36,742 nt of DNA from a virus: positions 1 to 36,742 of IMG/VR virus record IMGVR_UViG_3300021090_000070; one strand, written 5' to 3'. Numbering within the stretch: the stretch's first letter is position 1; every line of letters starts with the position of its first letter. Position numbers and translations under genes: made by a program. Positions 9,686 through 21,540 of this stretch are shown piece after piece. The notes below the pieces were generated by a model. That model made no database searches. It saw only the letters and a list, made by a program, of their open reading frames with translations, and was not told the origin of the DNA.

Positions 9686-10189
9686 TCATGGCTTCTTTGC
9701 CTCAGGTACGGTCGGTCCCGCTCCCGCCTTCTTAGCGCGGTCGGCCTCAACTTTGATTTTCTTGGCAAGCGCGCGGTCTATTACCTCTTGCGGCATAATC
9801 ATAAGGTTCTCGACGTCATCTACGTCTCCAAGGGCAATCTGTGACTGCGCGCGATCGTCATTGCCATGCCCCGTAAGGTAGTTCTCCAGCAACATGGCAA
9901 TGCAGCATTGGGCATGTGCCAATACAGAAAGACCACTCTCGAAGTCAAGGTTGACACCTAACTTGAAGTCTTGGAGATGATGTTCAGCCGACACAATTAG
10001 ACGATGCCAATCGAAGCCATCGCCTTCCTTCCAATTGCCTACTGAGTAGGCAATAGACCCATAATGGAAGGTTTTGCAGGTCTCAATGTAGGCCCTAACT
10101 GGATAGAGATCGGTCCTCACCTTTCCCTGGTCGTACTTGGTAGGTTGCACTACGCCACTGGCGTTCTTCTCAAGAAGGGGATTATTCAT
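9686..10189 (-). CDS. dATP/dGTP diphosphohydrolase N-terminal-like (DUF5664)
   Basis: The 167-residue product matches the DUF5664 pattern: KYDQGKVRTDLYPVRA near the start, YGSIAYSVGNWKEG, an RLIVSAEHHLQDF helix, and LDFESGLSVLAHAQCCIAML. The repeated acidic and His residues (AEHH, DFESG, HAQ) suit a metal-dependent all-alpha NTP pyrophosphatase. In other phages this family turns dATP/dGTP into monophosphates and is found with modified-base pathways. The C-terminal 50 residues are charged and disordered. The start overlaps the upstream stop as ATGA. A role in steering purine deoxynucleotide pools fits the nearby deazaguanine genes but is inferred. Confidence 0.72.
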   Translation of the reverse strand: MNNPLLEKNASGVVQPTKYDQGKVRTDLYPVRAYIETCKTFHYGSIAYSVGNWKEGDGFDWHRLIVSAEHHLQDFKLGVNLDFESGLSVLAHAQCCIAMLLENYLTGHGNDDRAQSQIALGDVDDVENLMIMPQEVIDRALAKKIKVEADRAKKAGAGPTVPEAKKP

Positions 10190-10761
10190 TTTGCACCGTC
10201 TTCATCGTGGGAAGATGGCTTGGCGGTACGTTCAGCAGGCTCCTGGGACTTGGCGGCTACTTCTGGTTCTGCTTTTGGGGTTGAGGCTTTGACGATGTAC
10301 TTTTCCAGGTCGGCGCCTACTACACGATACAGTTCTGTGGGGGAATCCTCCATATATGAACTGAACTCTATGGCTCTGTCTGACAGCTTGACTGCCTTGT
10401 TCTTGAAGGGCTCAATACTGAATACTGCTTTGCCCTTCGTGATGGCATAGAGCATTTCCTGAATAGTCGAACCACCGATATACCCACCTACGTTAAGTAC
10501 CAGTACTACTTGTGACATGTCGATCTTGCGCAGGTGCACGTGATCGAGCATTGCTTTCTGTGCCGGAGTGTACCAATCCTTGCCGCCCATCTCCTCCATC
10601 TGGGAAGGGAAACATGCTAATGAGAAGCATGGGTGCCCAGCGAAGGCTAACCACCTTGACCAGTCATGGTATGCCTTCTCGAAGCGAGCCGAACCTATTA
10701 GAGTCCAGGGGCCAGAGATCACATCGGTTACGGGTGTCTTCGTGGGTGCTTGGTCTGCCAT
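10186..10761 (-). CDS. Nucleoside 2-deoxyribosyltransferase-like protein
   Basis: The product is 191 residues. GPWTLIGSARFEKAYHDW, a hydrophobic AGHPCFSLACF strand, HLRKIDMSQVVLVLNVGGYI, and GGSTIQEMLYAITKGKAVF match the Rossmann-like nucleoside 2-deoxyribosyltransferase/DUF4406 superfamily, where the last segment includes the catalytic Glu (here Glu in STIQEM). The C-terminal 40 residues are charged and low-complexity. Enzymes of this type exchange or hydrolyse bases on deoxynucleosides or their monophosphates. A GGAG precedes the start, and the stop overlaps the DUF5664 gene. The substrate is unknown. Confidence 0.7.
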   Translation of the reverse strand: MADQAPTKTPVTDVISGPWTLIGSARFEKAYHDWSRWLAFAGHPCFSLACFPSQMEEMGGKDWYTPAQKAMLDHVHLRKIDMSQVVLVLNVGGYIGGSTIQEMLYAITKGKAVFSIEPFKNKAVKLSDRAIEFSSYMEDSPTELYRVVGADLEKYIVKASTPKAEPEVAAKSQEPAERTAKPSSHDEDGAK

Positions 10762-10787: not shown

Positions 10788-13370
10788 TCAGTTACAGTCG
10801 CTTTGGCCACAGTCGATACAAGTCTTACAGCCTTCCTTCATTTGTACGTTGAACCCCCCACACGCCGTACACTGTACTGTGGTTCCTACTACAATAGGGT
10901 CACCTTCATCTATGTGTTCTCGAGCAATTCCAGCCTGTACTGTCTTCGAAACTATTGTCGCAACAACAAACTGTTCATTCGAGAACTTGGCCATTTCTTC
11001 CATGTCGGAAAACTCTTCGGCATGTTCTTTAATATGGGCCCCAATCTGTGCAATGATGGATCCATAGAACCTCCCTCCACTCCAAGAAGGGTTCATTGAT
11101 AAGTTAATCTGCATTAACTCATTTGCCACCATAATAGGGTCCTTCGTAAGCTTCAGGTGCTTCGACAAGATAACCGATAGCGCCGTTGCCCGCTCAGTAT
11201 ACTGGGAGTTCTTGGACGATATAAATACTTCCTGGAGTTCTCCAACGTCGTTGTGGTTGATAGTCAGGTAGGTAGCTGCGGCTAATCCAGGCCACTTGAT
11301 TTTGTAAGTTCTTCCTTCTAGAGCTATCGGCCGTTCCTTGGACGTTTGCTCCACGGCAAGGGCCGCTGCAGACCCACTAGGACCCACGCGCTGAGTATCG
11401 GGAGCCCCCAGGTCTACTCCCTTGAATGTATAAGTTGATCCACCATCAGGGCGTTCGTGTAAGGTCTTTCCAAATTGCGCTTCGTCTAACTCTTCAGTGG
11501 CACCTTCTTGGGGAGTGTCGGCTGATTCAAGGATCGATCCGCGTACCTCTGATTGGCGGTAAGTCGTACATCCTTTGCATCCTTTATTCCATGCCATCAA
11601 GTAGACGTCCTTGAACTTCTCAAAGGTAATATCCTTTGGGCAATTGACCGTCTTACTTACAGAAGCATCGACATACTTCTGTACAGCTGCCTGTATGTTG
11701 ATATGATCCTCAGCCGTCAAGTCCTCAATCGTCGGGAAGTGCGATGGGTGCTTCTTGATATGCTCATATGCTGCCTCGATGCTCATTCCTACCACATGAG
11801 CATAGTAGCGGACTGAATAGGAGTATTCGGTGAACTGCTTATAGGTGTCGTCTGGTTGGCGGACGTTACGAGTAGTACGGTGGGCGAAGTTTGGTTCACA
11901 GCCAGAGGATACGTTCCCGTAGAAAGCCGACGTTGTACCGGTAGGCGCAACTGTCAGTAGCACGCAATTGCGAAGCCCATGCAACTTGATCTTGTCCTTG
12001 AGGCCATCGTTCTTTAGGCTGTCGACGAATGCCCAATTGAAGGTCCTAGGATCGAATGTAGGAGCAGGACCCTTCTCAATTGCGAGGTCGCAAGACTTTT
12101 CATATGCAGCTACCGCAATCTTCTTCATAACATTCGTGGTCCATGTGACGGCTTCAGGAGAACCGTAACGTAGTCCTACCATTGATAGTGCGTCTGCTAG
12201 GCCAGTAATACCAAGACCAATACGACGCTTGTTCTTCATCTCAACTTCTTGAGCCCCCAAGGGATACAGGGTGGTGTCGATGACGGAGTCTAATAGGGCT
12301 ACCATGTAGTCAACAGCAACGATGAGAGTTCTCCAATCCATTTCAGCATTTGAGGAATAAGCATTGAGAATGAGACGTGCGAGGTTGAGATGTCCGAGAT
12401 CACAGGCGCCGTAAGGTGGGAGGGGTTGTTCCCCGCACGGGTTCGTACACCTAATGTCCTCGACATAGCGAAGGTTATTCAGCCCATTGATCCTATCGAT
12501 GAAAATGACTCCTGGCTCCGAATACTCGAACGAGGACTTCATGATGAGGTTCCACAAGTAAGCGGCCGGTACGGTTTCCCAACGATAGACCACGTCATAA
12601 CCTACCTTGCCTTCAGTCCAATGGCGCACCTGCTCGCGACTCTTCTTTTCTTCTGGGGACCAGTCAACATGGACGGAGGAATGAACGAGATTCCAGTCGC
12701 CGCCTTCTTTTAGGCACTGCATGAACGCGTCTGAGACGAGAACAGAGACGTTGAAGTTTTTGAGCCTATCTTTGGTGTGCTTGGCAGTGATGAAGTCGAC
12801 GATGTTCGGATGGTCGATGGACATTGTTGCCATCATGGCGCCGCGTCGGTGGCCAGCAGACATGATGGTCTTACACATGGCGTCCCAGGTATCCATGAAA
12901 GGCAACGGGCCTGAAGAAGAAGAGCCCGTACGTTTCAGGCGTGCCTTGTGGGGACGTAATGGGGAAAAGTCTACGCCGATACCCCCACCCATCTGCATGG
13001 TAAGGGCTGACTCTGAAAGGGTCTCGAATATGCTAGCGAGGCTGTCCCCCATCGTGCCCATGACATAGCAGTTCATGAGCGTGACACGATTGCCAGTCCC
13101 AGCACCTGATATGATACGCCCAGCTGGCACTAATACGCCTTGATACATAAGCTCAGCGACCCTAACAGCCTTTTCCGGATCTGACGGGAACAATGCATGA
13201 GCTGTGCGCGACATAGTCTGGTAGATTGAGGCTTCCAATGCACGATACTTCTTGTTCCATACCTCTTTGGAGAGGACAGTATCCCACAAGTCAAATTCAT
13301 GTGGTAGGAGTGTGGCAGCTAACTCTGCATCCTTTACGGAGGGCATAAAAGGTTCCCTAGAGTCGTTCAT
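10788..13370 (-). CDS. nrdJ: Class II (B12-dependent) ribonucleotide reductase
   Basis: The product is 860 residues. MNCYV places the redox Cys at 101. NPCGEQ gives Asn310, the radical Cys312 and Glu314, with partner Cys323 in GACDLGHLNLA, the expected 11-residue spacing. VAPTGTTSAFYGNVSSGCEP is the substrate phosphate loop. A TSCPD-like region and a Cys-rich end (CTACGG, CKTCIDCGQSDC) match the adenosylcobalamin-dependent class. It makes deoxynucleotides without oxygen dependence; the host must supply B12. The sequence is intact. A GGAG precedes ATG 13370, and it forms a unit with the small gene and promoter upstream. Confidence 0.95.
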   Translation of the reverse strand: MNDSREPFMPSVKDAELAATLLPHEFDLWDTVLSKEVWNKKYRALEASIYQTMSRTAHALFPSDPEKAVRVAELMYQGVLVPAGRIISGAGTGNRVTLMNCYVMGTMGDSLASIFETLSESALTMQMGGGIGVDFSPLRPHKARLKRTGSSSSGPLPFMDTWDAMCKTIMSAGHRRGAMMATMSIDHPNIVDFITAKHTKDRLKNFNVSVLVSDAFMQCLKEGGDWNLVHSSVHVDWSPEEKKSREQVRHWTEGKVGYDVVYRWETVPAAYLWNLIMKSSFEYSEPGVIFIDRINGLNNLRYVEDIRCTNPCGEQPLPPYGACDLGHLNLARLILNAYSSNAEMDWRTLIVAVDYMVALLDSVIDTTLYPLGAQEVEMKNKRRIGLGITGLADALSMVGLRYGSPEAVTWTTNVMKKIAVAAYEKSCDLAIEKGPAPTFDPRTFNWAFVDSLKNDGLKDKIKLHGLRNCVLLTVAPTGTTSAFYGNVSSGCEPNFAHRTTRNVRQPDDTYKQFTEYSYSVRYYAHVVGMSIEAAYEHIKKHPSHFPTIEDLTAEDHINIQAAVQKYVDASVSKTVNCPKDITFEKFKDVYLMAWNKGCKGCTTYRQSEVRGSILESADTPQEGATEELDEAQFGKTLHERPDGGSTYTFKGVDLGAPDTQRVGPSGSAAALAVEQTSKERPIALEGRTYKIKWPGLAAATYLTINHNDVGELQEVFISSKNSQYTERATALSVILSKHLKLTKDPIMVANELMQINLSMNPSWSGGRFYGSIIAQIGAHIKEHAEEFSDMEEMAKFSNEQFVVATIVSKTVQAGIAREHIDEGDPIVVGTTVQCTACGGFNVQMKEGCKTCIDCGQSDCN

Positions 13371-13802: not shown

Positions 13803-16253
13803 TTAAGCCGCTTCCTTTTCTGGGTACCAGAAGGACTTCTTTACCTTTTCCAAGTGGCCCCAACGGTAGCCCATCTTACCGTCGGCGACGAATGGGATAT
13901 AGGTTAGTCCGTAGTCCTTAGGAACTTGTTCCATCACCGCTATAACACGACGGCCAAATGCCGAGATAATAGTATCATCGTCAGGAAGACTCCAAATGTT
14001 AGAGTCATGTACAAGATTACAAGGATCAGCATCATACTCCTTGGCGAATGAAGCGAAGACTCTCTCGGCGGATTCAAGGTTACAGTTGGACGCAATTGAC
14101 TGGTGGAGAAAGTTCGCTGCCTCATTCTGTACCGCATTTTTGTTTTCCCAACCTACTACCCCAAAGCGTCGCTTGTTGCCGAATGGGGTTATGAGTGTAG
14201 CTCCTGTAAGTGGGGCCATACGACACTGGTCAATAAACTTCTTAGCCCCAGGGAACCGTTTGAACCACCCGTTGACCCAACGGTTTCCCTCGTCAAGACT
14301 GACCTTCCATTCTTCTGCTAGACTGGCGCCTGTACGGCCATATACGATGCCGAAGTTAACCATCTTGGCGCGCATCTTCTCGTCATCGGTATAGTTCGCA
14401 CTAAACAGTGTGACCGATAATTCATGGTGTAGGCCTGGATGGCTAGGATCCAGGTAGATGGCACACAAATCAGGGCAGCGACTTAGTTCTGCTAAGCATC
14501 TAAGCTCGGCTTGGTTGTAATCGAACTCCACGAGACGGCGACCTGGAAGTGCAATGAACTGCGAACGAACCTCGGAGTCGCGTGGAATGTTCTGCATGTT
14601 GATATCACGGCTGGCGAGACGACCTGTTACAGACCCGTGCAGTAGATAGGAGCAGTGCACCCTCCCATCCGAATGGACGTTGGGACCTCTAGTACCTTCA
14701 AGGCTACCTTTGTGCTTCTTATCTGTGGGGTCGAAGTTGTAAAGGTTCTTGACGTAGGTGGAATGAAGCTTCTGGCTCTTCCTATATTCCTTAAGAAGAA
14801 CGATGACGGGATTAGGAGGTAACATATCAAGGGTGTCAGCATCGGTCGATCGTGAACCCTTATACTTGGGAATCTTGACTCCGTCGTACAGGAGTTCGGC
14901 AACTTGTGGCGGGGAGTTGGGGTTGATCTCTTTGCCCAAACGGGCTTTGGCGACTATGTTAAGGCGTCTCTTACGGTCGGTAATTTCCTGCCGGAACATA
15001 ACGTCAAGTTTCTTGGTCTGCTCTTTGTCAACAAGCATGCCGTTACGTTCGACCTCAACAAGGAAGTTGCTCCATCGGATTTGATGTCTATAGAGCTTTT
15101 CTAGGTGCAGATCCTTCGCTACTTGCGGACGCAACATACCGAATGATTGATTGGTGACCCCTATATCTAGTCCCAAGTATTTATGTAGTACGGGTGTAGG
15201 GATCTCTCGATAGGAAGCCTTCTTAGAGGAGCGGTATTGGTCTAACATTGCCTTCCAGTTAGGAGCATTGCATGCATCTTGCCCTACTTGCTCCAAGTCA
15301 TGGATACCGCGAGTCTCGTCTAGGCAATAGGACAACATCATCGTGTCATCATCGACCACAGCGTTAATGCTGTCATAGTTGGATCCGGGATGTTGATTCA
15401 GCATCCTAAGGAACCTGATATCGAACTTACCATTGTGCCAACAGAAGCGGAAGCGTCTATCTTCAAGAAGCGCCTTGACTGCTGGGGTAGGAACTAGACC
15501 CTCAGGTATGACGTAGTTCTTGTCTAGCTGGTCCATCCGTCCAATGCCAATACAGAGGATGTCATCATCAATGGGTGAGAAGCCGGATGTTTCGATGTCC
15601 GTCCCAAGCTCGTCGCCGTTAGGAAGGGTTGCATGCCAACCTGCGATTTGTTCTTCACTAGTGAACACCTCGTGCGTAGACATTATGAACTTGGGTAATG
15701 GTACTCCGGTGAGGAGCATGGCGGCGGTTCGTACATCCTTTTTGAACTTAGGATATGAACCCGTCCCACGCATTAGGAAGGCTGGATGGACAGAAGCAAC
15801 TATCCCTTCGGCTGCAAGGGCGCGATAGCTGTCGGCGTTAAACACAGTGCCCCGTATTTGCGTGATCTTGATGTCGTAGTCGCCTGTTAGAGACTGAACA
15901 GCTGGGCCACCAAGTGCAAGGATTACCTTCCTAGGATGTTTGCGGATGGAGTCTACGAGTCGTTGGTTGCAAGCCTTACAGGCTCGCTCCATCTTACTGG
16001 CTTCCTTGCCTTGGGGATGGCACATGATGGCATTGGTGTAGAATGGTTGGATAGGTTGTTGATCTATAGCCTTGAAGGCGTTCTTAATTACGGAGTCCAG
16101 CATCTTGCCAGACTCACCTACGAAGGGTTTCCCTTCCTTGATCTCGTTCTTACCAGGACTCTCGCCTACAATGACGAACGGGCTATCTTGGGGGCCACGG
16201 GTACCGCATGTAGCCGTCTTAAAGACACAACCCGCACAATTGTTAAAAGACAT
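13803..16253 (-). CDS. DNA polymerase A fused to a family 4-like uracil-DNA glycosylase
   Basis: The 816-residue product has three parts. Residues 1-185 are a uracil-DNA glycosylase of the Fe-S family: NCAGC (Cys6, Cys9), GESPG (30-34), GKPFVG, HPAFLMR (156-162) and further Cys78, Cys92 and Cys95. Residues about 210-380 are a 3'-5' exonuclease: DIE (219-221), HNGKFD (273-278), and Tyr359 with Asp363. Residues about 390-816 are the polymerase: motif A with Asp578, motif B RAKMVNFGIVYG with Lys630 and Tyr638, and motif C VHDS, where the usual Glu after HD is Ser751. It is likely the replicative polymerase. The glycosylase may remove or scan for uracil. The start overlaps a small membrane gene; its ribosome binding site is weak. 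Confidence 0.93.
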   Translation of the reverse strand: MSFNNCAGCVFKTATCGTRGPQDSPFVIVGESPGKNEIKEGKPFVGESGKMLDSVIKNAFKAIDQQPIQPFYTNAIMCHPQGKEASKMERACKACNQRLVDSIRKHPRKVILALGGPAVQSLTGDYDIKITQIRGTVFNADSYRALAAEGIVASVHPAFLMRGTGSYPKFKKDVRTAAMLLTGVPLPKFIMSTHEVFTSEEQIAGWHATLPNGDELGTDIETSGFSPIDDDILCIGIGRMDQLDKNYVIPEGLVPTPAVKALLEDRRFRFCWHNGKFDIRFLRMLNQHPGSNYDSINAVVDDDTMMLSYCLDETRGIHDLEQVGQDACNAPNWKAMLDQYRSSKKASYREIPTPVLHKYLGLDIGVTNQSFGMLRPQVAKDLHLEKLYRHQIRWSNFLVEVERNGMLVDKEQTKKLDVMFRQEITDRKRRLNIVAKARLGKEINPNSPPQVAELLYDGVKIPKYKGSRSTDADTLDMLPPNPVIVLLKEYRKSQKLHSTYVKNLYNFDPTDKKHKGSLEGTRGPNVHSDGRVHCSYLLHGSVTGRLASRDINMQNIPRDSEVRSQFIALPGRRLVEFDYNQAELRCLAELSRCPDLCAIYLDPSHPGLHHELSVTLFSANYTDDEKMRAKMVNFGIVYGRTGASLAEEWKVSLDEGNRWVNGWFKRFPGAKKFIDQCRMAPLTGATLITPFGNKRRFGVVGWENKNAVQNEAANFLHQSIASNCNLESAERVFASFAKEYDADPCNLVHDSNIWSLPDDDTIISAFGRRVIAVMEQVPKDYGLTYIPFVADGKMGYRWGHLEKVKKSFWYPEKEAA

Positions 16254-16362
16254 AATGCAACGCCCAAAATATAAATTCCAAGACGAACATAAGTACGAAG
16301 GTACCTACTACACCAAACACTACCACAAGTAAGGCAAATATGGCTGCATTGCCCCAACTCAT
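16243..16362 (-). CDS. 39-residue single-TM protein
   Basis: A 39-codon gene fits exactly between the DpdA-like gene and the polymerase. GGAG lies 7 nt before ATG 16362, the upstream stop is 1 nt away, and the stop lies 11 nt inside the polymerase gene, suggesting coupled translation. Almost the whole peptide is one TM helix (AAIFALLVVVFGVVGTFVL and an aromatic second part). The function is unknown. It is one of several tiny membrane proteins in this operon. Confidence 0.65.
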   Translation of the reverse strand: MSWGNAAIFALLVVVFGVVGTFVLMFVLEFIFWALHYVF

Positions 16363-16363
16363 G

Positions 16364-17146
16364 TCAGCTCTCCGTCTCTCCGATCAGGTCTCGCACATAT
16401 TTGATGTTCTTAAGGGCCTGGAGTGTATGCTTCTTGGATTCCCAGTAGTCACCACGTTTACCATAGTCACTTTCGGCTAAGCAAAAGGGGATATTCCTTT
16501 GGCCAGCACGCACGGGAACTGCTGAGTCGATACCTTCGCAGACACCAGCTGCGGCACATAGCATGTCGTCAACTACATTGTCACTAAAGCCGAGCAAGTG
16601 CAATCTCCATTCAGGCTTTATCATCGTTGCCATTTGGATTAGTTGCCGACGGGAACCAAGCTGTTGGGTGGCGATCCTTGGTATTCCAATCCACGTAATA
16701 TACTCGTGCTGCGAATACTCTTCAAGGCAAGTGGCGAAGTCTGATATTGTTGGGCCTTGCGGTACTGCCATGTATTGGTAGTTCCCTCTTGGTAAGCCCT
16801 TGGATATTGTGTCATTGAAGAGCTTCAGAGACCTCTTACCGCTCCCCATAACATCGGGCAATACCATCACGTCAGCATGCACTACCTCCGCTGCAGCGGC
16901 TACCAACCACATATCAACAGCATCGCCAAGTTCCACGATGCTGTTGTCCATGATTATAGTACAATCTTGAAACCAATCTCGAACCTTCTCGAAGTGTGCA
17001 CGGTACTCATTCCGGTTATGTATGGAGGCAATTATATCATGGGCCAGCAATAGATGATATGAGCCATGGTGCATATGCTGATTCTGGTCATGATTCCAGA
17101 GTGACTGGAGAAGTGGAAGGGGGGCTACTGGCGCGAATCGTGTCAT
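16364..17146 (-). CDS. DpdA-like DNA guanine transglycosylase (7-deazaguanine insertion)
   Basis: ATG 17146 is chosen because AGAGG lies 6 nt upstream and the start overlaps the previous stop as ATGA; a longer frame exists but has no support. The 260-residue product fits the phage DpdA group related to tRNA-guanine transglycosylase. MDNSIVELG (Asp67) and VLPDVMG (Asp98) are candidate catalytic and base-binding acids, followed by MAVPQG, WIGIPRI, LHLLGFSD and EGIDSAVP, which follow the TIM-barrel strands. The predicted reaction replaces guanine in DNA with preQ0 or a derivative. It lies in one operon with four preQ0 synthesis genes, which strongly supports the call. Confidence 0.82.
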   Translation of the reverse strand: MTRFAPVAPLPLLQSLWNHDQNQHMHHGSYHLLLAHDIIASIHNRNEYRAHFEKVRDWFQDCTIIMDNSIVELGDAVDMWLVAAAAEVVHADVMVLPDVMGSGKRSLKLFNDTISKGLPRGNYQYMAVPQGPTISDFATCLEEYSQHEYITWIGIPRIATQQLGSRRQLIQMATMIKPEWRLHLLGFSDNVVDDMLCAAAGVCEGIDSAVPVRAGQRNIPFCLAESDYGKRGDYWESKKHTLQALKNIKYVRDLIGETES

Positions 17147-17379
17147 TGTTTGCCTCTTTGGTTTATGGCTCTGTTGACGGCTTGACGGATTTCGTGGGTG
17201 TGCTTCAATTGGAATATGATACCACACATAACTGAGGCTCCTAACGCTTCCAAGAACATACCAAGGTAGTGCAGTACGGGATCAAGACTTTGAGCAAGGT
17301 GGTATCCCGTAATCATAAGATAGACTAATGCGACTGCTGTAAATAGAATGGATAGAATAGCCCAAAAACCAGATGGCAT
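17143..17379 (-). CDS. Small two-TM membrane protein
   Basis: The product is 78 residues. Helices at about 5-27 (FWAILSILFTAVALVYLMITGY) and 36-58 (YLGMFLEALGASVMCGIIFQL) are followed by a basic tail (KHTHEIRQAVNRAINQRGK), giving N-in/C-in topology with both ends in the cytoplasm. AAAGGG precedes the start. It is inserted between FolE and the DpdA-like gene and overlaps the latter as ATGA. No known deazaguanine step needs a membrane protein, so its role here is unknown. Confidence 0.75.
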   Translation of the reverse strand: MPSGFWAILSILFTAVALVYLMITGYHLAQSLDPVLHYLGMFLEALGASVMCGIIFQLKHTHEIRQAVNRAINQRGKQ

Positions 17380-17383
17380 GAGA

Positions 17384-18049
17384 TTAACCCTTTCTTGTGA
17401 GTGCGAGGAACTCTGCCCGAAGGGAATCTACCGTAAAGAACTTTCCGTGTAGTCTGCTTGTGATGGTTGTAGAGTCACTACCCTGTACACCACGATGGGA
17501 CACGCAGAAGTGCTGTGCCCTAATAACTACGGCGACGTTCTCCGTACCTAAGACGAGCATGAGTGTGGCGGCGATCTGTTCTGTCAGACGCTCTTGAACT
17601 TGAGGACGACGACTGAAGAAGTCGACGATGCGGTCCATCTTGGACAGACCGAGTACCTTATCCTTTGGGAGGTAGGCAACGGTAGCACGTCCTACGATCG
17701 GAAGGAAGTGATGCTCGCACATAGACTTAACGTCGATGCCATCGCGAACTACCATCTCCTCGTACTTCATCTTGTTGGCCACTTCCGTGCAGTCAGGGAA
17801 CTTGGAATAGTCAAGGCCCCAAAACAACTCCTCCACATACATCTTGGCAAGCCTCTTGGCAGTCCCCTTCATGGAGTCATCGTCGGTATCTAATCGAAGT
17901 GCTTGCAGAAGATGGGTTGCAGCGTCTTCAGTTGCAACAAGGGCAGGTCCATATCTCGTAGGGAGTATATGCTCTTTAGTAGGCGTCTCGATGCCTAGCT
18001 CTTTTAGGTAGGCTTGAACCTTCTTGCCGAGGTCTCCGTTATTTGCCAT
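17384..18049 (-). CDS. folE: GTP cyclohydrolase I
   Basis: ATG 18049 follows AGAGGAG; a GTG further upstream is less likely. The 221-residue product has SMCEHHFLPIVG (zinc Cys111, His113 and His114 region), AQHFCVSHRGVQ (zinc Cys182) and KMDRIVDFFSRRPQVQERLTEQ. It converts GTP to 7,8-dihydroneopterin triphosphate, the first step of both folate and preQ0 synthesis. Linkage to queE, queD and queC assigns it here to the deazaguanine path. It starts 2 nt after the queE stop, so it is in the same transcript. Confidence 0.95.
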   Translation of the reverse strand: MANNGDLGKKVQAYLKELGIETPTKEHILPTRYGPALVATEDAATHLLQALRLDTDDDSMKGTAKRLAKMYVEELFWGLDYSKFPDCTEVANKMKYEEMVVRDGIDVKSMCEHHFLPIVGRATVAYLPKDKVLGLSKMDRIVDFFSRRPQVQERLTEQIAATLMLVLGTENVAVVIRAQHFCVSHRGVQGSDSTTITSRLHGKFFTVDSLRAEFLALTRKG

Positions 18050-18051
18050 GG

Positions 18052-18906
18052 TTAGACTCCTCTTGCGTTGCCCCAAAATAGGACGTGAAGTTGTGGCGTG
18101 ACTTTACAGTCATGCAAGAACGGTTCTTGCAAGATGTCTTCCACCAACTGCGTATAGTGGTCTAACAGAAGCGGGCGGATCTCTTTGGCGGAGAGGCCCT
18201 TGCCATCGTTGATTTGGGGTGGGAACGGATTCCCAAGCGATAGATAGAAGCGTTGGCGGATCTGCGGCCATCTACCTAGCAGACCTTTGGCGAACTCGAT
18301 GTCGACTTGGTTCATGATGACAACCTTCACAGACCAATCGGTTACGGGGAAACCAAGAGCTTTCCTAGAAAGTTTGTCAACATAGACCTGGAAGTCTTCT
18401 GCACTGAATTCTTCGCCCATCCCAGGACCCTTAGGTGAGACTGTCACATGATCGCACTTCAGAAGCCAATCTGCCCAAAGAGAGCCTTGGGTTTCGACAG
18501 CGATCTTGCGACCTACGTCATGAAGATTATCGACGAGGTTGTCAAGGTCATGCATGACTGGATTACCCCCACTAAGGGTGACCCAAGTAGCCACACGCTC
18601 AGAGGCCATCAATGCGGTAATGATTTCGCTGGTGGTCATCCGGATAGAATTCTTCTTGACTTCTTCTGGCAAGACAGCATGTAGGGAATCACACAGCGTA
18701 CAGCGGAAGTCACAACCACCAAAACGGATGAACATTGTTTGCTCGCCAAGCATAGCCCCCTCACCCTGAATAGTGGGCCCGAACATCTCCACTACAGGAA
18801 ACTTCCTATCCCTCTTGGGTATGGCTTCCTCGAGGGCAGCTTCAGCCTTCTCGTTAATAGCTTGACCAGATATGATGGTCCTATTGATAACCTTGATAAC
18901 TGTCAT
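18052..18906 (-). CDS. queE: 7-carboxy-7-deazaguanine synthase
   Basis: The product is 284 residues. The N-terminal 38 residues are an extension, followed by the QueE start motif EMFGPTIQGEG (40-50) and the radical-SAM cysteines Cys65, Cys69 and Cys72 (CX3CX2C) in GGCDFRCTLCD. TLSGGNPVMH supplies the SAM-binding Gly motif, and VTVSPKGPG is characteristic of the family. It converts 6-carboxy-tetrahydropterin to 7-carboxy-7-deazaguanine using SAM and Mg2+. The start overlaps the queD stop as ATGA. Confidence 0.95.
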   Translation of the reverse strand: MTVIKVINRTIISGQAINEKAEAALEEAIPKRDRKFPVVEMFGPTIQGEGAMLGEQTMFIRFGGCDFRCTLCDSLHAVLPEEVKKNSIRMTTSEIITALMASERVATWVTLSGGNPVMHDLDNLVDNLHDVGRKIAVETQGSLWADWLLKCDHVTVSPKGPGMGEEFSAEDFQVYVDKLSRKALGFPVTDWSVKVVIMNQVDIEFAKGLLGRWPQIRQRFYLSLGNPFPPQINDGKGLSAKEIRPLLLDHYTQLVEDILQEPFLHDCKVTPQLHVLFWGNARGV

Positions 18907-19382
18907 GGCTTGGTCCTTCCGTAGATGGCGGAGTTGCCTGTGTGCTCGCTGACCTCGACAGCATCCAGGAAGACTCTTGGGGCATAGCCATTATCAACTA
19001 GCCAGATGTCTGAAGCATAATCAAATATCATCCGAGCCATCGCTTCGCAGCCGGTCGCTGGCACAACCACAAGTTGACAGAGACCGCGCGCTTCCAAACT
19101 TTGGATTGTACCAAGCTCCGGATCATCCTCGGCCACGATCGTTTTATGATCGAACATGTCTTCAAGCCATCCCTTAAGGCTCTTGAGCGATCCAAAGTCG
19201 ACTACCCAATTACGGACGTCGAGTTCATCTGTACCAAAGACGAACTTGACCTTGATCGCATAGCCATGCAAGAATCTGCAGTGGGATTCTGCCCGCCATT
19301 GACGGAAGCAGCAAGAGAGCCCTACTGAATGATCATAGGTCTTAGTGCTCCAATAGGTATGTCCTTCTGTTGCTTTCGTCAT
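18903..19382 (-). CDS. queD: 6-carboxy-tetrahydropterin synthase-like (QueD)
   Basis: The 159-residue product resembles QueD/6-pyruvoyl-tetrahydropterin synthase. SHCRFLHGY holds His34, Cys35 and His39. ELDVRNWVVDFGSLK and FDHKTIV give the family's Asp78-His79 pair. The usual HGH zinc motif reads HGY here (Tyr41), and the usual PT.EN segment reads PATGCEAMA. FRQWRAESHC may rebuild the zinc site with His34. This looks like a phage-type QueD branch rather than a broken gene, because everything else is intact. The ATGA overlap with queC and queE supports its role. Confidence 0.85.
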   Translation of the reverse strand: MTKATEGHTYWSTKTYDHSVGLSCCFRQWRAESHCRFLHGYAIKVKFVFGTDELDVRNWVVDFGSLKSLKGWLEDMFDHKTIVAEDDPELGTIQSLEARGLCQLVVVPATGCEAMARMIFDYASDIWLVDNGYAPRVFLDAVEVSEHTGNSAIYGRTKP

Positions 19383-20185
19383 GCTGAAGGCATCTCCTCG
19401 TTAGCTTCATGGTCATAGGTACGTGCGGCCTTCTCGCCTTCAGCCATATCTGCATAGACTGTTGGGTCATAAACGCCGGCGTTCTCGAAGCCTTCCCTAC
19501 GGCTCCGACACGTAGGGCAAGTTCCACATTGAAGCTCGAGTCCTTTGTAGCAAGACCAAGTGTTCTGCCAAGGGACATGAAGCTCTTGGCCATGCATGAT
19601 TACATGTGTCTTGTCGAGCCACTCAAGAGGCGTGCACAAACGTATCCGACGATAACTGCCAATATAAATCGCATTGGCCATAGCTCCAATAAACTCGGGC
19701 GTGCAATCAGGATATGCCCAATTAGCCGCATCCTCAGCGTGAGCACCAAAATAAATATCCGCCTCCACCGGTTCGCCCCCTTCATAGTCTCCGGCACGTG
19801 CTTGGATTCCGAGGTCTTGTTCTGCATTCTTCACGAGTCCTTCTGTGAATGCTGTTATCAAGGATAACATTGTGCCGTTGCGGAAAGGAACGTAAGTAGG
19901 CGACACCCCAACAATGTCGCTGTATGAGATGTCGGGCACGGCAGCCTTCTCGTCTGTCAGCATTGACTTCGGGAAGACATTAGGCACCTCAAGCATGTGG
20001 TGCGGTACGCCGAGTAGGTCGCATGAGAACTTGGCGTAGACGGTTTCCTTCAGGTGCCGCTGACCGTAGTTGACCGAGACTGCATGCAACTCCTGGTAAG
20101 AGGGTTTGGCGTGGTATGCATGGTAGAGGCACGTAGTGGAATCGACCCCACCACTCAATAGGACTACGGCGATTCTATGTGTCAT
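19379..20185 (-). CDS. queC: 7-cyano-7-deazaguanine (preQ0) synthase
   Basis: The product is 268 residues, preceded by AGAGGAG. The ATP pyrophosphatase loop SGGVDST is at 11-17, VNYGQRH at 38-44, and zinc Cys212, Cys220, Cys223 and Cys226 in the C-terminal half. It converts 7-carboxy-7-deazaguanine to preQ0 with ammonia and ATP. A stretch near residues 115-145 looks longer than in cellular QueC. No amidotransferase domain is fused, so the archaeosine-type Gat-QueC route is not indicated. It is the first of the four synthesis genes in transcription order. Confidence 0.95.
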   Translation of the reverse strand: MTHRIAVVLLSGGVDSTTCLYHAYHAKPSYQELHAVSVNYGQRHLKETVYAKFSCDLLGVPHHMLEVPNVFPKSMLTDEKAAVPDISYSDIVGVSPTYVPFRNGTMLSLITAFTEGLVKNAEQDLGIQARAGDYEGGEPVEADIYFGAHAEDAANWAYPDCTPEFIGAMANAIYIGSYRRIRLCTPLEWLDKTHVIMHGQELHVPWQNTWSCYKGLELQCGTCPTCRSRREGFENAGVYDPTVYADMAEGEKAARTYDHEANEEMPSA

Positions 20186-20414
20186 GGTCTGACTCCTCTG
20201 CCTTTGGTTGGGGTGGGATTATAGATTGAGATGGGGCTGGGATGCTACCTTGTTCAGCCACGACGCAGTAGTTAAGACAATCGATGATTGTCTGTGCCCA
20301 AAGGTCGGAGTGCGAAGTGGCGATGATCCCAGGACCGTTAGGCTTGGGCTGAAGAGTATCGACGATGTTGTTGTGCACTGTACCCTTCTTGTCAATGGCG
20401 AAGCGCTCGGTCAT
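20175..20414 (-). CDS. Hypothetical protein before queC
   Basis: The product is 79 residues from ATG 20414, which has GGAG 6 nt upstream; an in-frame ATG 12 nt earlier lacks one. It begins MTERFAIDKKGTVHNNIVDTL, continues with a soluble helix (SHSDLWAQTIIDCLNYCVV) and ends in a Pro-rich acidic tail. The stop lies 11 nt inside queC, implying coupling. The family is unknown. Confidence 0.72.
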   Translation of the reverse strand: MTERFAIDKKGTVHNNIVDTLQPKPNGPGIIATSHSDLWAQTIIDCLNYCVVAEQGSIPAPSQSIIPPQPKAEESDHDT

Positions 20415-20416
20415 GA

Positions 20417-20749
20417 CTATCTCCATCTACTTGGAAGGAAGGTTGCTCGGATCATGAATTTCAACTTCGTCCATGGGGACTGGTTTCGAATGGATTGTAT
20501 GGCTGCGATCTGGGCTACCTGTTGTTCCTTCAACTCCGTCTCGGGGTCGTTGTGCTTCGCCACTTCCCGATCGATTTGCTTCTTCACGTCCTGGATGGTC
20601 CCCAACATCGGCATTGGGACGTGGGAAGATTCCGGCAGGTCTTGGAGAGGGTGCATCTTCTTGAGGGAGCGTCGCGCCTTGATGGTCTGACCGGAAGATT
20701 TCACTTTGGGTGATTTGGCTCCGAACTTTAGGGTTGCTGTCTTGGACAT
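20417..20749 (-). CDS. Basic helical protein nested in a helix-turn-helix gene frame
   Basis: The 110-residue product starts at ATG 20749, with GAGGAA about 9 nt upstream. The N-terminal half is Lys/Ser-rich (KFGAKSPKVKSSGQTIKARR). The second half forms a convincing charged helix (QDVKKQIDREVAKHNDPETELK, then QQVAQIAAIQSIRN). It ends 2 nt before the next gene. Nearly all of it lies inside the reading frame 20427-20951, shifted by one base. Composition favours this frame as coding in 20450-20740, while the last residues of the other frame (DEVEIHDPSNLPSK) look more natural than this one's. Dual coding or a frameshift near 20475 are both possible. Confidence 0.6.
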   Translation of the reverse strand: MSKTATLKFGAKSPKVKSSGQTIKARRSLKKMHPLQDLPESSHVPMPMLGTIQDVKKQIDREVAKHNDPETELKEQQVAQIAAIQSIRNQSPWTKLKFMIRATFLPSRWR

Positions 20750-20951
20750 TTGATTGTTCCTCGTGGGATTGGGGATCATAGGCACCAAACCTTTGGTACC
20801 GATCAATTTCTGTTACGTGGATTAGAATTCTTGTGCCAACCTTGAAATGTTGAAGGGCACCGGAGGCGACCAGTTTCTTTAGGTTATAGGGCGACTTGCC
20901 AAGCAACTTACAGGCTTTGCTGATCGTGACATTGTTCGTTGCAAAAGACAT
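20427..20951 (-). CDS. Helix-turn-helix (excisionase/MerR-like) protein with long tail
   Basis: From ATG 20951 the product is 174 residues. Residues 7-57 (VTISKACKLLGKSPYNLKKL, VASGALQHFKVGTRILIHV, TEIDRYQRF) match the HTH_17/excisionase-type DNA-binding fold. The rest is disordered and Pro/Gly/Arg-rich, and overlaps the nested gene in another frame, so part of it may be a by-product of that gene's codon pattern. No ribosome binding site is clear at ATG 20951, and the open frame continues upstream to 21104 inside the previous gene. It may be a small regulator of the operon. Confidence 0.55.
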   Translation of the reverse strand: MSFATNNVTISKACKLLGKSPYNLKKLVASGALQHFKVGTRILIHVTEIDRYQRFGAYDPQSHEEQSNVQDSNPKVRSQITQSEIFRSDHQGATLPQEDAPSPRPAGIFPRPNADVGDHPGREEANRSGSGEAQRPRDGVEGTTGSPDRSHTIHSKPVPMDEVEIHDPSNLPSK

Positions 20952-21039
20952 GTTGGTGGTGGCCTGGTCCGCATGTAGTTCGTTGGTGTGGTAGCGAGGT
21001 GATCGATTAAGACCACCCCGTAGGCACGTTAATAGATAG

Positions 21040-21540
21040 TTACGTCGCTGCACCTTCGTCAGTGGCTGGGGCACCCATGAAGGCCGAGGTGTCGGCGAGA
21101 CCAACGACTTCAGCGACTTCAGTGCGCTTCTCGCCGTTCTGGTCTTTGCCGATCTTGGTCTTGACGCGGATGTTCCGCCCGACGATGTCGTAGTCGTCGA
21201 AGTTCTGAGGACGGAAGTCTGCCGTAAGAACTTCAGGGCACATCCGCGCTAGCGTACGTTTGCTAAAGGGCAATGCCTTCTCACTGAAAGAGACGTTGTG
21301 GAAGAGCTTGCGCCCTTCATACTCGCCTTCGGTGATCACATAGACCAGTGCCCACATAGGTAGGCCGGCCGATGCAGACAGCTTGTATTCGCCTTCATCG
21401 ATAGTGCAGACGTAAGTGGACTTCGGCAAGACTTCATTCTTTGCCTCTGGCACCTGCGTCATATCTACGACGTAACCGCCATCTTCTTGTTCTTGAAGGA
21501 AAGCGGACTCTGCAGCTGTTGGTGCTTTCTTGTCGGTCAT
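21040..21540 (-). CDS. Putative ssDNA-binding protein (DUF669-like)
   Basis: The product is 166 residues with an AAGGAG before ATG 21540. VLPKSTYVCTIDEGEYKLSA, a strand-rich core (MWALVYVITEGEYEGRKLFHNV) and the end VGLADTSAFMGAPATDEGAAT match the plan of DUF669-type phage proteins: a binding fold followed by a flexible tail. These are often encoded next to a Sak4-like ATPase, as here. It probably coats single-stranded DNA for replication and recombination. Assignment is by pattern and neighbourhood. Confidence 0.65.
   Translation of the reverse strand: MTDKKAPTAAESAFLQEQEDGGYVVDMTQVPEAKNEVLPKSTYVCTIDEGEYKLSASAGLPMWALVYVITEGEYEGRKLFHNVSFSEKALPFSKRTLARMCPEVLTADFRPQNFDDYDIVGRNIRVKTKIGKDQNGEKRTEVAEVVGLADTSAFMGAPATDEGAAT

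What the first reader, a model, noticed from the sequence alone, without database searches (positions are those of the whole stretch)
16364..20185. Complete preQ0 pathway plus DNA transglycosylase: predicted 7-deazaguanine DNA
QueC, QueD, QueE, FolE and a DpdA-like enzyme lie in one tightly overlapping operon. Seen: ATGA overlaps, PP-loop and zinc cysteines (QueC), CX3CX2C (QueE), zinc motif (FolE), Asp67/Asp98 in the DpdA-like protein. Known: these enzymes make preQ0 from GTP, and DpdA enzymes swap it into DNA in other phages. Inference: this phage replaces some guanine with preQ0 (or a derivative if a further enzyme lies outside the window), protecting it from host restriction.
Basis: partly seen in the sequence, partly recalled or inferred. 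Interest (0 to 1): 0.85.

Follow-up and report, generated by a model that had tools for sequence, protein, structure and literature searches.

The report
Phage operon for 7-deazaguanine DNA modification
This uncultured phage carries a complete gene set for making preQ0, a modified guanine base, next to a distant relative of the enzymes that swap such bases into DNA, so it very probably disguises its genome from bacterial defences; the strategy is known, but this branch of the swapping enzyme is largely unannotated and is almost always encoded directly before the phage's DNA polymerase.

Summary
On the minus strand, QueC, QueD, QueE, FolE and a 260-residue DpdA-like protein form one tight operon, followed by a family-A DNA polymerase. 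The four pathway enzymes are confirmed by profiles. The DpdA-like protein matches no Pfam, NCBIfam or convincing PHROG family, but its AlphaFold model (pLDDT 94.9) has tRNA-guanine transglycosylases as its 26 best PDB matches. It has the expected catalytic aspartates, and its profile aligns with an annotated phage DpdA (Flavobacterium immuto, E=1e-22) and with Campylobacter CP220 gp056 (E=3e-20). CP220 DNA has 100% of dG replaced by dADG, and no other TGT-family protein was found in it. I found 74 relatives in viral contigs. Of 51 loci with enough flank, 41 keep all four preQ0 genes; in 58 of the 65 loci with a polymerase, PolA lies within 300 bp downstream. No convincing QueF was found in near-complete close relatives, so preQ0 (possibly ADG) is the likeliest base. 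Two points differ: the enzyme is not of the classic 9g or nt-1 type, and replacement could be far more than partial. This is a new, divergent member of a known kind; the extent and timing of replacement need mass spectrometry and biochemistry.

The parts
20427..21104 (-). ORF with helix-turn-helix domain (HTH_17), upstream of the operon; probable regulator or excisionase-like protein
   Evidence: PF12728 5.9e-8
20175..20426 (-). 83-residue ORF of unknown function whose end overlaps the QueC start (ATGA)
19379..20185 (-). QueC, 7-cyano-7-deazaguanine (preQ0) synthase
   Evidence: PF06508 7.8e-52; phrog_1550 3.1e-56; E. coli QueC 2PG3 3.5e-26; TIGR00364 145.5 bits, just under its cut-off of 150.3
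18903..19382 (-). QueD-like 6-carboxytetrahydropterin synthase, alphaproteobacterial-type variant (FRQWRAxSHCxxLHGY)
   Evidence: PF01242 1.3e-17; phrog_2389 4.7e-42; up to 66% identity to cellular homologs; 66 of 80 cellular homologs lie near FolE
18052..18906 (-). QueE, 7-carboxy-7-deazaguanine synthase (radical SAM)
   Evidence: TIGR03365 8.7e-66, over cut-off; phrog_2076 5.1e-36
17384..18049 (-). FolE, GTP cyclohydrolase I
   Evidence: PF01227 3.2e-59; NCBIfam FolE equivalogs over cut-off
17143..17379 (-). 78-residue hydrophobic (probably membrane) ORF; its stop overlaps the DpdA start
   Evidence: sequence; no family match
16364..17146 (-). DpdA-like DNA-guanine transglycosylase, 260 aa; Asp67, Asp98, His183, Asp207
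   Evidence: AF2 pLDDT 94.9; Foldseek TGT ranks 1-26; hhalign to immuto DpdA 1.2e-22 and CP220 gp056 2.5e-20
16243..16362 (-). 39-residue hydrophobic ORF between DpdA and PolA; its end overlaps the PolA start
   Evidence: sequence
13803..16253 (-). Family-A DNA polymerase with N-terminal UDG-superfamily domain; the most constant downstream neighbour of this DpdA family
   Evidence: PF00476 8.3e-54, PF03167 1.1e-20; 58 of 65 loci have PolA within 300 bp downstream of DpdA
10788..13370 (-). Ribonucleotide reductase large subunit, same strand downstream (context)
   Evidence: PF02867 3.3e-125
10186..10761 (-). Nucleoside 2-deoxyribosyltransferase-like protein (context; matters for the nucleotide-pool rival)
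   Evidence: AF2 core about 80 pLDDT; Foldseek ranks 1-11 all nucleoside 2'-deoxyribosyltransferases
9686..10189 (-). dATP/dGTP diphosphohydrolase N-domain protein (context)
   Evidence: PF18909 1.2e-19

Best explanation
The operon is a self-sufficient 7-deazaguanine DNA modification module. FolE, QueD, QueE and QueC turn GTP into free preQ0 (shown by family assignment, not by assay). The DpdA-like enzyme, a minimal TGT-type barrel without the TGT zinc site, breaks the glycosidic bond of guanine in phage DNA through a covalent link to Asp207 and puts the deazaguanine in its place, with Asp67 and Asp98 as general acid/base and guanine-recognition residues (inferred from TGT). It is probably made and used together with the adjacent DNA polymerase, so that new DNA is modified as it is synthesised (inferred from gene order). 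The modified genome resists host restriction nucleases (established for CAjan and other phages, inferred here). The final base is most likely preQ0, less likely ADG, and replacement may be extensive.
For: Family hits for all four pathway enzymes. Model fold is TGT-like, better than any unrelated barrel. Catalytic aspartates conserved over 40 sequences. A family profile finds the solved bacterial DNA-guanine transglycosylase 7UI4 as its top PDB hit (E=0.006, weak), aligning the HLLG and the catalytic Asp region. Homology to immuto DpdA and CP220 gp056; no PF01702 TGT in any of 17 records, CP220 included, though all 14 control genomes ring; CP220 has 100% dG replaced by dADG (PMC8306585). Linkage to all four preQ0 genes in 41 of 51 loci and to PolA in 58 of 65. 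Of 26 records searched for QueF only immuto has a convincing one; the BSP7 and Youna2 hits fall inside FolE, and four further weak hits were not placed. Phages with the preQ0 pathway plus DpdA and no amidotransferase (CAjan, Rosebush) carry dPreQ0 at about 28-32% of G (PMC6884629). Indirect: in the study of the syntenic Brevundimonas phages, all 17 winter contigs left after dsDNase treatment were StAshley and MaInes (PMC10070969), as nuclease-resistant DNA would give, though abundance alone could do it.
Against: Nothing here shows modified DNA. The window is a 36.7 kb fragment, so a further tailoring enzyme may lie outside it. Sequence identity to CP220 and immuto is only about 20%, and the window lies in a different well-supported clade with no tested member. 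Profile comparison with classic DpdA2 is weak and with 9g DpdA absent. QueD scores far below its NCBIfam cut-off (38 versus 89 bits) and lacks two of the three zinc histidines of E. coli QueD. The StAshley paper used EcoRI patterns to tell isolates apart (PMC10070969), which would be hard if that DNA were fully EcoRI-resistant.
Confidence: 0.83

Rival explanations
1. Nucleotide-pool model: the modified base is put on a deoxynucleotide before replication (dGTP to dGMP by the diphosphohydrolase, base exchange by the DpdA-like enzyme or by the nucleoside deoxyribosyltransferase-like protein, then rephosphorylation), and the adjacent PolA uses the modified dNTP, as in Z-genome phages.
For: PolA is immediately next to this DpdA family (58 of 65); in this window RNR, an NDT-fold protein and a PF18909 dGTP diphosphohydrolase lie in one operon; NDT-like proteins of two related contigs appear fused to MazG-like segments by eye; complete replacement in CP220 is easier to reach before replication.
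Against: The kinase and pyrophosphohydrolase genes are not constant: PF18909 in 2 of 17 other records, MazG, DNMK and thymidylate kinase absent by Pfam from most relatives; NDT-like protein in only 3 loci. TGT-family enzymes are known to act on polymers. DpdA1 of phage 9g is also next to replication genes.
Confidence: 0.1
2. Same system, but the final base is not preQ0: ADG, CDG or a derivative made by an enzyme outside the window.
For: CP220 carries dADG (PMC8306585); immuto has QueF and a formyltransferase beside its DpdA; the window is incomplete.
Against: QueC aligns with true preQ0 synthases; no QueF in StAshley (complete circular record) or in the near-complete contigs closest to it.
Confidence: 0.3
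3. The genes raise queuosine in host tRNA rather than modify DNA.
For: The pathway to preQ0 is shared with tRNA queuosine; phages with the pathway but no DpdA were proposed to do this (PMC6884629).
Against: A TGT-fold enzyme sits in the same operon, without the TGT zinc motif (CxCxxC in 0 of 62 homologs) and outside PF01702; no QueF or tRNA-specific Q genes found in the operon.
Confidence: 0.04
4. The 260-residue protein is an unrelated TIM barrel that only happens to be beside the preQ0 genes.
For: No Pfam or NCBIfam match.
Against: TGT structures take ranks 1-26; conserved Asp residues in TGT order; linkage with preQ0 genes across divergent phages.
Confidence: 0.02

Closest known systems
Brevundimonas phages vB_BpoS-StAshley and vB_BpoS-MaInes (ON529865, ON529866)
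   Same: Same gene order: helicase, exonuclease, QueC, QueD, QueE, DpdA-like, PolA, RNR; DpdA-like proteins about 35-42% identical, depending on the alignment. In these records the DpdA relative is annotated only as hypothetical protein.
   Different: FolE lies downstream of RNR in StAshley; no NDT-like protein seen there; modification never tested as far as found.
DpdA of Campylobacter CP220 (gp056), Cellulophaga phiST and Flavobacterium immuto; from memory these are the DpdA3 subfamily of Cui et al. 2023 (NAR, not held in the library)
   Same: Homologous enzymes of about 260 residues with the same conserved Asp, Asn, His and Asp.
   Different: Only about 17-23% identity; separate clades; CP220 carries dADG, immuto has QueF.
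CAjan- and Rosebush-type preQ0 systems (DpdA1)
   Same: Four preQ0 genes plus a DpdA and no amidotransferase (PMC6884629).
   Different: The transglycosylase belongs to another branch: hhalign finds no relation to 9g DpdA.
Vibrio phage nt-1 DpdA2
   Same: TGT-related enzyme beside preQ0 genes.
   Different: 464 aa against 260 aa; only a weak local profile match.
Bacterial and eukaryotic tRNA-guanine transglycosylase (TGT)
   Same: Fold and order of active-site aspartates.
   Different: No zinc motif, no PF01702 match, about 10% identity.

Membership tests
Phage DNA-guanine transglycosylase, CP220/phiST/immuto branch (DpdA3, name from memory) | TGT-type TIM-barrel fold | tested here: met
   pLDDT 94.9, pTM 0.92; Foldseek PDB ranks 1-26 all TGT, best E 1.1e-7
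Phage DNA-guanine transglycosylase, CP220/phiST/immuto branch (DpdA3, name from memory) | Sequence homology to members of the branch | tested here: met
   hhalign 1.2e-22 to immuto DpdA, 2.5e-20 to CP220 gp056; BFVD match to phiST M4SLA5 8.7e-13
Phage DNA-guanine transglycosylase, CP220/phiST/immuto branch (DpdA3, name from memory) | Catalytic aspartates in TGT order | tested here: met
   Asp67 and Asp207 invariant, Asp98 at least 90% in 40 homologs; correspondence to Zymomonas TGT Asp102, Asp156 and Asp280 is from knowledge of the motif, not from superposed coordinates
Phage DNA-guanine transglycosylase, CP220/phiST/immuto branch (DpdA3, name from memory) | Linked to preQ0 synthesis genes | tested here: met
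   41 of 51 loci with sufficient flank have all four
Phage DNA-guanine transglycosylase, CP220/phiST/immuto branch (DpdA3, name from memory) | Inserts a deazaguanine into DNA; complete replacement of G | not testable with these tools
   needs mass spectrometry
DpdA1 (phage 9g type) | Profile similarity to 9g DpdA | tested here: not met
   hhalign probability 0.1, 11 columns; only a single 9g sequence was compared
DpdA2 (phage nt-1 type) | Profile similarity over the catalytic domain | tested here: not met
   hhalign probability 37%, 65 columns only
tRNA-guanine transglycosylase (PF01702) | PF01702 match | tested here: not met
   no Pfam match for the window protein; none in 17 relatives' records while 14 of 14 controls ring
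tRNA-guanine transglycosylase (PF01702) | Zinc site CxCxxC | tested here: not met
   0 of 62 homologs
preQ0 pathway (FolE, QueD, QueE, QueC) | All four enzymes with catalytic motifs | tested here: met
   FolE and QueE over NCBIfam cut-offs; QueC 145.5 of 150.3 bits with conserved PP-loop and cysteines; QueD keeps Cys35, His39, Asp78 and His79 but not two zinc histidines, like its cellular relatives that lie beside FolE

The most novel reading that the evidence does not exclude
This phage and its relatives replace most or all guanine, with a dedicated polymerase: the minimal DpdA works together with the neighbouring UDG-PolA, or exchanges the base on deoxynucleotides before replication (helped here by the NDT-like and dGTP-diphosphohydrolase proteins), making a G-substituted counterpart of the Z-genome.
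Probability: 0.12. Interest if true: 0.8.

Novelty: new member of a known kind. Interest (0 to 1): 0.45.

Why it matters
It extends the most divergent branch of phage DNA-guanine transglycosylases to a large set of unannotated phages, among them isolates that can be grown today (StAshley, MaInes, BSP7, Youna2) and for which no test of DNA modification was found. The near-constant DpdA-PolA adjacency makes a specific question testable: whether extensive guanine replacement is coupled to replication. Modified genomes also bias restriction-based and some sequencing-based work on such phages.

Tried and rejected
A single-protein scan of viral contigs found nothing; an alignment of four relatives found 74 loci, while the eight-member alignment was too divergent to scan with. 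Cellular relatives of the DpdA-like protein: none found in the one genome scan. The A4 profile against PDB sequences gave only chance hits; A2 gave 7UI4 weakly. The QueF matches in BSP7 and Youna2 fall inside FolE (T-fold cross-match) and were discarded. The idea that the odd QueD zinc site marks a novel phage enzyme was dropped: it is common in Alphaproteobacteria and Poseidoniales. The nucleotide-pool model was tested by searching relatives for MazG, DNMK, thymidylate kinase and PF18909; they are not constant. The key paper on DpdA3 (Cui et al. 2023) is not held, so the subfamily name rests on memory.
Full report
What is there. The window is a linear 36,742-base virus record from IMG/VR, often a fragment by that class. 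On the minus strand lie, in transcription order, a helix-turn-helix protein, an 83-residue ORF, QueC, QueD, QueE, FolE, a 78-residue hydrophobic ORF, the DpdA-like protein, a 39-residue hydrophobic ORF and a family-A DNA polymerase. Start and stop codons overlap at QueC, QueD, QueE, DpdA and PolA, which indicates one translation-coupled operon.

The four pathway enzymes. FolE and QueE pass NCBI's curated cut-offs; QueC is just below its cut-off and aligns with E. coli QueC of known structure. QueD scores low and lacks two zinc histidines of E. coli QueD, but the same variant is common in Alphaproteobacteria and marine archaea, at up to 66% identity, with a FolE gene nearby in 66 of 80 cases, so it is very likely functional. 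It also hints that the host is an alphaproteobacterium, as for the syntenic Brevundimonas phages.

The transglycosylase. The 260-residue protein has no Pfam or NCBIfam match. tblastn finds relatives in Brevundimonas and Bacillus phages, and the Bacillus relative in turn finds CP220, phiST, immuto and MA9V-3 proteins. An alignment of four relatives brought in 74 viral contigs. Over 40 sequences the invariant residues are Leu34, Asp67, Asn68, Glu72, Gly74, Gly131, Arg166, His183, Gly186 and Asp207, with Asp98 nearly so. The AlphaFold model is confident (pLDDT 94.9, pTM 0.92), with Asp67 and Asp207 in barrel strands near their C-terminal ends, Asp98 just after one, and His183 within a strand. Foldseek puts TGT at ranks 1-26, ahead of every other TIM barrel. 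Profile comparison gives 1.2e-22 to immuto DpdA and 2.5e-20 to CP220 gp056, but little to nt-1 DpdA2 and nothing to 9g DpdA. No PF01702 TGT is found in 17 relatives' records, although all 14 controls ring, and no homolog has the TGT zinc motif. The window sits in a well-supported 31-member clade with StAshley, apart from CP220/immuto and phiST/MA9V-3.

Function. CP220 and CPt10 DNA has all dG replaced by dADG (PMC8306585, citing earlier work). The 2019 survey listed such Campylobacter phages among those without a recognised DpdA (PMC6884629). A relative of the window protein is the only TGT-like candidate found in CP220 here, so the family very probably performs the insertion. Phages with preQ0 genes plus DpdA and no amidotransferase carry dPreQ0 (PMC6884629). 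Near-complete close relatives lack a convincing QueF. Hence preQ0 is the likeliest base; ADG or another derivative is the main alternative.

Coupling to replication. In 58 of 65 loci with a polymerase in the flank, PolA lies within 300 bp downstream of DpdA, often overlapping. This is the most constant linkage besides the preQ0 genes, all four of which are present in 41 of 51 adequately sampled loci. It suggests modification during or just after replication. A nucleotide-level route is attractive in this window, because RNR is followed by a nucleoside deoxyribosyltransferase-like protein (Foldseek ranks 1-11; moderate-confidence model) and a dGTP diphosphohydrolase family protein. These genes are rare among relatives, so they are at most accessory.

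Indirect laboratory hints. In the study of the Brevundimonas phages, all 17 winter 'ssDNA' contigs left after double-strand-specific DNase were StAshley and MaInes, which would fit nuclease-resistant DNA; but the authors call the preparation imperfect, and the same study used EcoRI patterns to distinguish isolates (PMC10070969).

Verdict. Observation confirmed and interpretation supported in its main line. The case is a divergent new member of a known kind, with the extent of replacement and the coupling to PolA as the open and testable points. The DpdA3 label and its link to complete replacement come from memory of a 2023 paper that could not be read here.

Noticed in passing
window 13803-16253: The DNA polymerase carries an N-terminal UDG-superfamily domain with conserved cysteines; 57 of 72 polymerase ORFs at the DpdA loci have it. 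Its role beside deazaguanine DNA is unexplained; polymerases from other phages also align over this region.
   Followed up: partly
window 10186-10761: Nucleoside 2-deoxyribosyltransferase-like protein between RNR and a dGTP diphosphohydrolase family protein; related proteins in L020 and L048 look fused to MazG-like segments.
   Followed up: partly
window 18903-19382: QueD of the FRQWRAxSHCxxLHGY type, without two zinc histidines of E. coli QueD, yet widespread in Alphaproteobacteria and Poseidoniales next to FolE.
   Followed up: yes
window 17143-17379 and 16243-16362: Two small hydrophobic ORFs flank the DpdA-like gene and are coupled to DpdA and PolA by overlapping codons.
   Followed up: no
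L002, Brevundimonas phages StAshley and MaInes: All winter contigs surviving dsDNase in a published virome were these two phages, possibly a sign of modified DNA (PMC10070969).
   Followed up: partly
L003, L007, L008, L005, L006: Relatives of the DpdA-like protein in isolated phages are annotated as hypothetical protein or, in other Bacillus phages, as NadR-like, polynucleotide kinase or integrase; they look misannotated.
   Followed up: yes
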